Assembly: GCA_001817425.1 (NCBI GenBank)
Contig: MHII01000035.1
Location: forward strand, 904 to 42,959
From: Candidatus Buchananbacteria bacterium RIFCSPHIGHO2_02_FULL_39_17
GTDB taxonomy: Bacteria; Patescibacteriota; Patescibacteriia; Buchananbacterales; UBA6539
Length of the DNA stretch: 42,056 bases
Reading direction: 5' to 3'
Part shown: positions 11,024-42,056 of the stretch, piece after piece
Numbering within the stretch: the first letter of the stretch is position 1
How the letters are laid out: the number at the start of each line of letters is the position of its first letter
Made by a program: the position numbers and the translations under genes
Notes under the pieces: model-generated
What the model saw: the letters and a program-made list of their open reading frames with translations, nothing else
What the model was told of the DNA's origin: nothing
Database searches by the model: none

Positions 11024-11261
11024 ATGATTCATCAAGATAAAATCAAACACTTTTTGGCATCTTTTACTTTAACCGTAGCAATTTTTTTATCCACCAAATA
11101 TTATCGTTTTAATTTTGGGGATAATTAAAGAAATCATTGATCATTATTTTAAAAAAAATACAATCAAACAATCATTGGCTGACGGTGTCGCTGACAGCTT
11201 AAGCGTTTTAACCGGTTTAGCGGTTTGTAACGTTTTGTTGATTATCTTTCCCGCAAACTAA
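11024..11261 (+). pseudogene. Frameshifted YfiM-like (DUF2279-type) small protein
   Basis: The first frame starts at ATG 11024 with QDKIKHFLASFTLTVAIF and hits a stop at 11126-11128. The other frame carries the matching second half from about 11079: LILGIIKEIIDHYF, then SLADGVADSLSVLTGLAV, ending at 11261. Joined, the two give about 79 residues with the DKxxHF...KE..D...D..AD pattern of YfiM-type small envelope proteins. The shift must lie between about 11079 and 11126, in a stretch with TTTTAATTTTGGGG runs. It may be true decay or a sequencing error at a homopolymer. Confidence 0.65.
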
Positions 11262-11282
11262 AAAAATTAGATTATTTTTTCC

Positions 11283-11311
11283 TTGGCGGGGATTTTATTT
11301 TATGTTATAAT
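11283..11311 (+). promoter_or_regulatory. Promoter of pgk
   Basis: TTGGCG (11283-11288), 17 bp, TATAAT (11306-11311), with an extended TG at 11303-11304. The predicted start at about 11318 leaves only about four leader bases before the ATG at 11322. Confidence 0.8.
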
Positions 11312-39122: not shown

Positions 39123-40604
39123 TTATTTTTCCGGTCTTAACAAGGGAAACAATACCACGTCGCGCAAATTATTCTGCTTAGTTAAGAGTGTAACCAAGCG
39201 ATCTAAGCCCATCCCCCACCCCGAAATCGGCGGCGCGCCGTGCTCTAAAGCCAAAACAAATTCATCATCTTTGCCGTGAGCTTCCGCGTCCCCGGTGGCT
39301 TTGGCTTTGGCTTGTTTCGCAAACCGCTCTTTTTGGTCAATCGGGTCAACTAATTCCGAATAGGCATTCACGATTTCCCAGCCGGAAATCACCAGCTGGA
39401 ACCGATCAACAATTTCTGGATTTTGATCGTTTTTCCGAGCCAAGGGCGACAAGTCAGCTGGCTGATATAAAACAAAGGTCGGCGGCGTAATTTTATCGCG
39501 GCAAACTGTTTTATACAAAGCGTCAATCAAATTCCCTCGCCCCAATTTTTCTATGCCGTCAATTTTAATTTTTTTGGCAATAATTGCCGCGCGTAATTTT
39601 TCGGCGGTTTCAAATTTATCAAGATCAAGTCTGCTTTCTTTTTTTATTAGTTCAACAAAACTGGCTTTTGGCCACGGCGGCTTAAAATCAATTTCTTGTT
39701 CTTTTCCGCTTTGGTCTTTAATCGTTAATTTAGTTTTGCCAAAAAGTTTTTTTAACAAATAAACAAAAAGTTCTTCGGTAAATTTCATATTATCTTCAAA
39801 ATTCCAATAAGCGACATAATGTTCCGCCAAAGTAAAATCCTGCAAATGAGACGGATCCATACCTTCGTTGCGAAAGCACCGACCAATCTCAAAAATTTTT
39901 TCAAAGCCGCCGATGATCGCTTCTTTTAAATAGGTTTCCGGCGCAATGCGCAAATAAACGTCAAGATCCAGGGCCTCATAATGAGTTTTAAACGGTTTAG
40001 CTAAAGCCCCCGAAGGATTATTGACCAAAATCGGTGTTTCTATCTCAATAAACCCGTTTTGCCAATAAAACTCCCGCAGAGTTTTAATCAACTCGCTGCG
40101 GAATAAAAAGCGCTGATAAGTTTCATTATTAGCGATTAGATCCAAATAGCGCTGGCGGTATTTTAATTCCATATCTTTTAGGCCATGCCACTTTTCCGGC
40201 ATTGGCCTAAATGCTTTACCTAAAAACTGATAAGTTTTGATTAAAATTGATAGCTCGCCTTTTTGGGTTTTGAAAACTTCACCGACAACGCCGATAAAGT
40301 CACCGGGGTCAAAAATCTGACTAAAAATTTTAAAATTTTCCTTACCAACCTCATCCTCTTTCAAAACCAGCTGAATTCTACCCGTAATATCCAAAATATG
40401 GCAAAAAATAATTTTGCCCATCCCCCGAATCGTCAAAAGCCGCCCCGCAGTTTGGACCTTTGCCCCAAGCTTAAACCCCAAAATTTCACTGACATTATGT
40501 TTTTTTTCAAACCGTTCGGGATAGGGATTAATCCTGGCGGCTCTGATTTTTTTTAATTTTTCCAGACGAATCTGGTATTCATCCTGATAATTTGCTTTTG
40601 CCAT
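39123..40604 (-). CDS. lysS: Lysyl-tRNA synthetase, class II
   Basis: This 493-aa class II LysRS has an N-terminal OB-fold anticodon domain (about 50-150; VQTAGRLLTIRGMGKIIFCHI and GDFIGVVGEVFKTQKGELSI). Motif 2 is FEIGRCFRNEGMDPSHLQDFT. The C-terminal motif 3 is PPISGWGMGLDRLVTLLT followed by NNLRDVVLFPLLRPE. An EHGAPP-type acidic stretch precedes motif 3 as usual. It heads the minus-strand group, behind a near-consensus promoter with almost no leader. Confidence 0.98.
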   Translation of the reverse strand: MAKANYQDEYQIRLEKLKKIRAARINPYPERFEKKHNVSEILGFKLGAKVQTAGRLLTIRGMGKIIFCHILDITGRIQLVLKEDEVGKENFKIFSQIFDPGDFIGVVGEVFKTQKGELSILIKTYQFLGKAFRPMPEKWHGLKDMELKYRQRYLDLIANNETYQRFLFRSELIKTLREFYWQNGFIEIETPILVNNPSGALAKPFKTHYEALDLDVYLRIAPETYLKEAIIGGFEKIFEIGRCFRNEGMDPSHLQDFTLAEHYVAYWNFEDNMKFTEELFVYLLKKLFGKTKLTIKDQSGKEQEIDFKPPWPKASFVELIKKESRLDLDKFETAEKLRAAIIAKKIKIDGIEKLGRGNLIDALYKTVCRDKITPPTFVLYQPADLSPLARKNDQNPEIVDRFQLVISGWEIVNAYSELVDPIDQKERFAKQAKAKATGDAEAHGKDDEFVLALEHGAPPISGWGMGLDRLVTLLTKQNNLRDVVLFPLLRPEK

Positions 40605-41029: not shown

Positions 41030-41062
41030 AAAAAAATCCCCTAAACCGATTGGTTCAGGGGA
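41030..41062 (-). terminator. Minus-strand terminator closing the hairpin array
   Basis: Read on the minus strand: CCCCTGAACC, AATC, GGTTTAGGGG, A, then seven T residues. The stem is 10 bp with one G-U pair. It sits two bases from the first hairpin unit, which implies that the array is transcribed leftward and ends here. Confidence 0.85.
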
Positions 41063-41063
41063 A

Positions 41064-42056
41064 GATGGGACACCCGGTTAATAGTTCTGGGTAACAAACT
41101 CAACATAGTCCCATCAAAATTTTAGAGCGAGACATCGTGCCCATAGTCCACAAACACGTAAAACTTAGTCTCGCAAAATTTCAGGCCGCTGTTTTTTATA
41201 AAATAGACACCATCCCTGTAGACGATAAGCCATCATACCGCTAGTCTACTTTACAAAAACAGCGGCAAAAAGAGCAAACCCCCATCAGAAGCCCCGGCTT
41301 TCTAACGGGGAGTAAGGCCGGGTCAACCCTATTATAGTTCCAGACATTCAGCAGTTAGACCCAGCGGAAAAACGATTAGTGAGTGAGTCAATCCAATTCT
41401 AGTTTATGAACACTCAACGGCTAGGCCCACTCACCAAAATCAAGGCAATGGCAGGACACTTTGCGATAGTCTATAAAAAGACAATCTTCTCCTAGTCCTG
41501 TCGTTAAATATTAAAAAGAAAGTAGTGGGCGGGACAACCTCTTCCTAGTAGAACAAACACACCATAGTCTCGTCCACTTACACAGAAATATCTTTAAGGA
41601 TACAGGATTTGCCTAGTCTAAAAAGACAGGAACATATTAGTATCCTCATTGAAAAAGAACTTCAAGGGCACATAGATGAACTAGTAAAAACAACCGTCAC
41701 GTAGTACCCTCTTTGAAGAGATTAACTCTGTTTTCCCTCTCCCATAAGGGAGAGGGTGGGGTGAGGCGCCCAAACTCCGTGACCTCACCCTAACCCTCTC
41801 CGTAATCGGAGAGGGTTTTTGTTAATCACTTTAAAGAAGGTGGGTGGGACACCCAAATACTAGCTTTTTAGCAAACCGTGCATAGTCCCACCCAAACAAG
41901 ATAATTATCGGCTAACTCACGTCTGCAGCAAAATCTTAAAATGAAGATTCACTAATTATTTAGAATCAGCCGAGAAAGAGCAAAAAGATATTGCCCGATT
42001 AAGACACACACCCTATAGTTAAGCAAACCTATCCTAGTCAAAACCAAGCAACGCTC
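41064..42056 (-). ncRNA. Array of about twelve covarying hairpin elements (candidate long RNA)
   Basis: Units start near 41064, 41127, 41186, 41320, 41379, 41450, 41525, 41598, 41660, 41842, 41908 and 41991, mostly 59-75 bp apart. The stem arms differ in sequence between units yet pair within each: GATGGGAC/GTCCCATC, GCGAGAC/GTCTCGC, GGCAGGAC/GTCCTGTC, GTGGGCGGGAC/GTCTCGTCCAC, GGATAC/GTATCC, GGGTGGGAC/GTCCCACCC. On the minus strand each good unit reads: arm, ACTAD, 14-21 bases often with a central TTTG or TGT, ACTAK, 8-9 bases, GTC, arm. No protein frame is credible. Copy 3 of the CCCTCTCC repeat interrupts it at 41735-41815. The unit at 41908 is divergent and the last has a weak stem. Strand is inferred from the terminator. 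Confidence 0.7.
41735..41815. repeat. CCCTCTCCC-type palindromic repeat, copy 3 (doubled)
   Basis: CCCTCTCCC / GGGAGAGGG, then GGGGTGAGG facing CCTCACCC, then CCCTCTCCG / CGGAGAGGG and TTTTTG. It separates array units 9 and 10, whose start-to-start distance is stretched to 182 bp. Confidence 0.85.

What the first reader, a model, noticed from the sequence alone, without database searches (positions are those of the whole stretch)
41064..42056. Array of about twelve hairpins with different but self-complementary stems and a fixed internal motif layout
Seen in sequence: units of 43-80 bp, mostly 59-75 bp from start to start. On the minus strand each is arm, ACTAD, 14-21 bases (often TTTG or TGT in the middle), ACTAK, nearly always 9 bases, GTC, arm. 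The arms change completely from unit to unit while keeping complementarity, and unit 3 (41186-41265) has an arm of about 24 bp. Only the two ACTA boxes, their spacing and the closing GTC/GAC are shared. Tandem copies that covary within one locus imply selection on structure. I know of no named RNA or recombination site with this layout. Possible roles: a multi-domain RNA, a set of protein-binding hairpins, or folded single-stranded DNA sites for a recombinase.
Basis: partly seen in the sequence, partly recalled or inferred. Interest (0 to 1): 0.93.

Follow-up and report, generated by a model that had tools for sequence, protein, structure and literature searches.

The report
Guide-RNA array missing its effector gene
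The hairpin row at the end of this window is a TIGR stem-loop array, a recently described CRISPR-like store of paired 9-letter RNA guides, here in an ultra-small Patescibacterium in whose assembled genome no matching Tas protein could be found.

Summary
On the minus strand the window holds 11 units (41064-42045) of the form: variable palindromic arm, CUA, 9 nt, UG, linker, CUA, 9 nt, UG, arm. Arms covary, shuffled sequence almost never gives such a unit, and the plus strand gives none. A covariance model of these units, run on 93 relatives, hit only one other genome, G004, where the units sit beside a gene that NCBIfam calls a TIGR-Tas RNA-guided endonuclease (above cut-off; its family profile's best PDB match is the 331-residue protein 9mty, probably TasR). 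The layout matches the stem-loop TIGR arrays of Faure et al. 2025 (PMC12045711): dual 9-nt spacers, box C CUA for CCA, box D UG, palindromes in place of edge repeats. It is therefore a new member of a known kind, not an unnamed RNA or an integron site. Unusual: the array lies between greA and lysS, adjacent genes in relatives that lack it; no Tas was found in this 96%-complete genome by four searches; and two strain haplotypes share flanking units while the middle units differ. In related arrays, duplicated units keep stems and linkers while most guides are replaced. No target was found. Likely: tigRNA precursor for a Tas acting in trans, or an orphaned remnant.

The parts
41998..42045 (-). 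unit 1 (RNA 5' end); spacers GGATAGGTT / TAGGGTGTG; arms weak beyond GAC/GTC
   Evidence: CM hit 33.7 bits; identical in haplotype C21
41908..41973 (-). degenerate unit: outer stem TCGGCT/AGCCGA around a one-spacer mini-hairpin GATTC-TA-N9-T-GAATC (41946-41967)
   Evidence: read from sequence; not found by the models
41843..41893 (-). unit 2; spacers TGCACGGTT / GTATTTGGG
   Evidence: second box C and last box D are changed in haplotype C21
41735..41816 (.). MITE-like palindromic repeat inside the array; a relative lies at C6:33467-33551 and a different one at the same place in haplotype C21
41664..41712 (-). unit 3; spacers CGTGACGGT / GTTCATCTA
41596..41648 (-). unit 4; spacers ATATGTTCC / GGCAAATCC; closing TAC/GTA instead of GAC/GTC
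41528..41575 (-). unit 5; spacers TGGTGTGTT / GGAAGAGGT; replaced by another unit in haplotype C21
41450..41502 (-). unit 6; spacers GGAGAAGAT / TCGCAAAG (8 nt); identical in haplotype C21
41382..41432 (-). unit 7; spacers GCCGTTGAG / GAATTGGAT
41317..41365 (-). unit 8; spacers ACTGCTGAA / TAATAGGGT; closing GTC/GAC inverted by covariation
41186..41266 (-). unit 9 with long arm (12 perfect bp outermost, about 24 bp in all); spacers GCGGTATGA / CAGGGATGG
41126..41176 (-). unit 10; spacers AGTTTTACG / TGGGCACGA
41064..41116 (-). unit 11 (RNA 3' end); spacers TGTTGAGTT / TTAACCGGG
41037..41062 (-). rho-independent terminator directly after the last unit (11 bp stem, T7)
39123..40604 (-). lysS (lysyl-tRNA synthetase); greA precedes it directly in relatives without the array

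Best explanation
This is a TIGR (Tandem Interspaced Guide RNA) array of the stem-loop type. It is transcribed on the minus strand as one precursor that ends at the terminator 41062-41037, and each hairpin is one guide unit (tigRNA): the palindromic arm closes the unit, CUA is box C, UG is box D, and the two 9-nt stretches are spacers A and B. By analogy with TasR, a dimer of a Nop-domain Tas protein would hold the two box C/D pairs and present spacer A to one strand and spacer B to the other strand of an about 18-bp DNA target. The clade of Tas found next to such units in related Patescibacteria carries GIRHR where an active RuvC motif I would have its aspartate, so binding rather than cutting is likely. 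In this genome no tas was found, so either the array works in trans with a Tas encoded in the unassembled 4% or on a mobile element, or it is a remnant. Shown: anatomy, covariation, strand, terminator, tas beside homologous arrays, absence of detectable tas here. Inferred: transcription, processing, DNA binding, inactive RuvC.
For: Units, spacer lengths and covariation. A model built only from this genome's 13 units hits, among 93 relatives, only G004 besides itself. There the units flank an ORF that matches NF052498 'TIGR-Tas system RNA-guided endonuclease' (E 4.8e-33, 114.9 bits, cut-off 100) and Pfam Transposase_20. A profile of 20 such proteins finds 9mty (331 aa, the length the paper gives for TaTasR) best in the PDB, E 6.8e-26, then IS621. 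R1 hits 49 places in 113 kb of loci chosen by Tas alone, against none for R2 in 26 lysS loci. Arrays and Tas co-occur in 18 of the 22 array-bearing genomes of 381 (Fisher p 3.5e-17; partly circular because R2 was trained on Tas loci). Units lie on the same strand as tas. Stems of units in other genomes show 6 G-U versus 1 A-C on that strand. [quoted passage not shown] Buchananbacteria. Ca. Buchananbacteria is also among the closest lysS hits here (72%).
Against: No Tas or IS110-type protein in the genome by NF052498, PF02371, a 20-member Tas profile or a search with the G004 Tas. No spacer target in the own genome, and chance-level matches in viral contigs (controls 78-79). Only a minority of units in other genomes keep exactly the CUA/UG boxes. 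G-U versus A-C counts inside the window alone do not settle the strand (3:4:5).
Confidence: 0.93

Rival explanations
1. Orphaned remnant: the array belonged to a TIGR-Tas system whose tas gene was lost, and it is now decaying without function.
For: No tas found; degenerate hairpins and a MITE-like insertion inside the array; unit 2 has two altered boxes in haplotype C21; unit 1 has weak arms.
Against: Ten of eleven units still have near-perfect arms, spacers of 9 (once 8) nt and intact boxes, and the terminator is intact, so any loss would be recent. Arrays on contig stretches without tas occur in genomes that do have tas elsewhere (G209, G142, G159).
Confidence: 0.4
2. Array working in trans: the Tas protein is encoded in the unassembled part of the genome, or on a virus or plasmid of the same cell, and uses this array.
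For: Genome 96% complete in 38 contigs; G209 and G142 have one tas locus and further arrays on other contigs; integrity of the units.
Against: Direct evidence is missing; both sides of the greA-lysS junction are assembled and the two bubble arms contain no tas.
Confidence: 0.5
3. Folded single-stranded DNA sites for a recombinase (integron attC-like), or an IS110 bridge-RNA-like element.
For: Variable arms with few fixed internal bases recall attC; IS110 transposases share the Nop-type RNA-binding domain with Tas (PMC12045711).
Against: No IS110-type protein in the genome; exact 9-nt dual spacers and tas-linked homologues fit TIGR; there are no cassettes between units. No attC model was run.
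Confidence: 0.03

Closest known systems
Stem-loop TIGR arrays with TasA or inactive-RuvC TasR (Faure et al. [quoted passage not shown]
   Same: Tandem hairpins, variable palindromes in place of edge repeats, two spacers of 8-12 nt flanked by box C and D, variable linker, occurrence in CPR bacteria.
   Different: No tas gene found beside the array or in the assembled genome; sits between the housekeeping genes greA and lysS; two haplotypes with different middle units.
Dual-repeat TIGR arrays (TaTasR, SpTasH, FpTasA)
   Same: Dual spacers of about 9 nt, UG and C.A boxes, terminator at the end.
   Different: Constant edge and loop repeats within a locus there; here arms and linkers differ in every unit.
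IS110 bridge RNA (IS621)
   Same: Internal loop with two guide segments bound by a Nop-type domain; the Tas profile also finds IS621.
   Different: Bridge RNA is a single two-loop RNA in a transposon; here there is a row of one-loop units and no transposase.
Integron attC sites
   Same: Hairpins whose arms vary but keep complementarity.
   Different: attC has R/L boxes in the stem and separates gene cassettes (own knowledge); neither is seen here.

Membership tests
[quoted passage not shown]
   9-nt spacers in 13/13 and 11/13 units (8 nt in the rest), boxes CUA and UG
TIGR stem-loop array (array component) | Variable but palindromic sequences in place of edge repeats | tested here: met
   93.7% of stem cells paired, 93 double changes; per-unit arms
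TIGR stem-loop array (array component) | Homologous arrays lie next to tas genes | tested here: met
   G004 and many loci chosen by Tas
TIGR-Tas system (array plus effector) | tas gene encoded beside the array | tested here: not met
   Neighbours are lysS and greA; no tas in either bubble arm or in the assembled genome
TIGR-Tas system (array plus effector) | Array transcribed and processed into single units bound by Tas | not testable with these tools
   Terminator present; no RNA data
TIGR-Tas system (array plus effector) | Spacers A and B pair with opposite strands of one DNA target | tested here: inconclusive
   No target above chance
Known Rfam family | Match at the curated gathering score | tested here: not met
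   0 matches in the window; below-threshold chance matches only
IS110 element | IS110-type transposase (Transposase_20 domain) | tested here: not met
   PF02371 none in the genome
Integron attC array | Integrase and cassette genes between sites | not tested
   No cassette-sized gene lies between units; integrase and attC models not searched

The most novel reading that the evidence does not exclude
A stand-alone chromosomal TIGR array that serves a Tas in trans and whose guides are exchanged within one population: two co-occurring haplotypes share flanking units but carry different middle units, and in related arrays duplicated units keep stem, boxes and linker while the 9-nt spacers fall to near-chance identity. 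This would point to a guide-replacement process in a system with no known adaptation machinery.
Probability: 0.3. Interest if true: 0.78.

Novelty: new member of a known kind. Interest (0 to 1): 0.5.

Why it matters
TIGR arrays were described in 2025, and neither their natural targets nor how guides are gained is known (PMC12045711 discussion). This array gives a case with no tas found and two natural haplotypes in one assembly, and the related arrays give duplicated units in which stems persist while guides change. Both make the open question of how such arrays expand and swap guides testable by read mapping in existing metagenomes.

Tried and rejected
Plus strand as the RNA strand: first assumed because units 5 and 6 have G-U pairs on that strand; rejected because the box identities (UG, CUA), the terminator and the strand of neighbouring tas genes all point to minus. 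Rfam: nothing. Targets: 18-mers spacer A + revcomp(B), the geometry that fits the reported 8-nt 3' overhangs, and the opposite geometry gave only a 14-base match at E 7 in the own genome. Four exact scans of viral contigs gave 1, 4, 0 and 0 hits, and two mis-paired controls gave 2 and 0, so this is chance level. PADLOC: no model matches these Tas. AlphaFold of the G004 Tas could not be run because the queue was full. G at position 7 of the window's spacers (17 of 25, p 8e-4 uncorrected) was not seen clearly in other arrays, so it is not interpreted.

Full report
Observation. The stretch 41064-42045 holds 11 hairpin units that a covariance model recognises. Aligned, each reads on the minus strand: arm, CUA, spacer A (9 nt), UG, linker (5-12 nt in the window), CUA, spacer B (9 nt, 8 in one window unit), UG, arm. 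The C of the first CUA pairs with the G of the last UG in every one of the 13 aligned units. The arms covary: 20 double-change cells against 6.3 in shuffles, and slid partners pair in only 30-38% of cells. A strict scan finds 10 units on this strand and none on the other, and at most 1 in each of 500 shuffles.

Extent. The window is cut at the contig end. Contig C21 begins inside the same array, carries its own version of the part near greA (1-573), and continues into greA. Both contigs share units 1 and 6 exactly, while between them C35 has units 5, 4 and 3 and C21 has two others; unit 2 is shared with five changed bases. I read this as two strain haplotypes that broke the assembly. The order greA, lysS on one strand is kept in relatives with gaps of 87 and 379 bp and no array, so the array is an insertion at a conserved gene pair.

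Identity. A model made only from this genome's units, run on 93 relatives, hit one other genome, G004, in three places. That locus lies beside a 464-residue ORF which NCBIfam names TIGR-Tas system RNA-guided endonuclease above its cut-off. From this I was led to Faure et al. 2025 (PMC12045711). [quoted passage not shown] box C is CCA and box D is UG in TasR arrays; arrays typically end in a terminator; and a CPR clade of TasR with inactive RuvC goes with stem arrays. Every anatomical point is met here. The terminator lies at 41062-41037 on the minus strand.

Independent support. Twenty Tas homologues chosen by protein alone form one family whose profile finds 9mty (331 residues) first in the PDB. 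Loci chosen by Tas contain 49 R1 hits, and those units read on the same strand as tas once the RNA strand is taken as the reverse of the model. Twenty-six lysS loci from other genomes contain none. In 381 genomes of the class 37 have a Tas-family hit, 22 have arrays and 18 have both; because R2 was trained on Tas loci this count is partly circular, whereas the R1 result is not. All 20 proteins have an H or similar where the RuvC motif I aspartate would be (GIRHR or a close variant), which agrees with the inactive clade; this reading rests on sequence alone, since no structure could be predicted.

No effector found. NF052498, PF02371, a search with the G004 Tas and a 20-member profile all find nothing in this genome, although NF052498 finds Tas in 37 other genomes. 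Completeness is 96%, so absence is likely but not proven. Arrays on contig stretches without tas occur in G209 and G142, which have a tas locus elsewhere, so a distant tas is not unusual. G194, G322 and G336 also have array hits and no Tas hit, with one or two units each.

Guide turnover. In G004 a block of about 330 bp is duplicated. One unit pair keeps 16 of 18 spacer bases, two others keep 7 and 6 of 18; in one of these the non-spacer positions are 34 of 38 identical and the stem changed on both sides, GCGGAAC/GTTCCGC to GCGGGAC/GTCCCGC. In G209 ten copies of one unit frame are 97% alike in the arm while the adjacent spacers are 26% alike, the level of chance. Guides therefore change much faster than frames. 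Whether by replacement or by diversifying selection is open; the haplotypes of the present array show the same kind of change.

Targets. None found in the own genome or, above chance, in viral contigs.

Verdict. New member of a known kind (the array), with an unexplained lack of a detectable effector, so the complete TIGR-Tas system is not claimed for this genome. Confidence in the identity of the array 0.93. Function in this cell is unresolved between trans use (0.5) and remnant (0.4).

Noticed in passing
L027:10815-11500 (genome G004): Duplicated 330-bp block of TIGR units in which stems and linkers persist but most spacers are replaced; one stem shows a compensatory change between copies.
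   Followed up: partly
L186:3200-8081 (genome G209): Very long TIGR stem-loop array on both sides of tas, built of roughly 225-bp multi-unit periods with conserved arms and unrelated spacers; further arrays on two other contigs (L179, L180).
   Followed up: partly
window 41735-41816: MITE-like palindrome inside the array; a relative at C6:33467-33551 and a different palindrome at the same position in haplotype C21.
   Followed up: no
window 41064-42045, spacers: Spacers are poor in C (12-13%) and often have G at position 7 on the RNA strand; not clearly seen in other arrays.
   Followed up: partly
L027:10907-10955 and 11238-11286; window 41713-41725: G004 has a hairpin without boxes (CTCTTTCCAGA...AGAGATTAAC) repeated between units; a similar GAGATTAAC stretch borders the palindrome in the window.
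   Followed up: no
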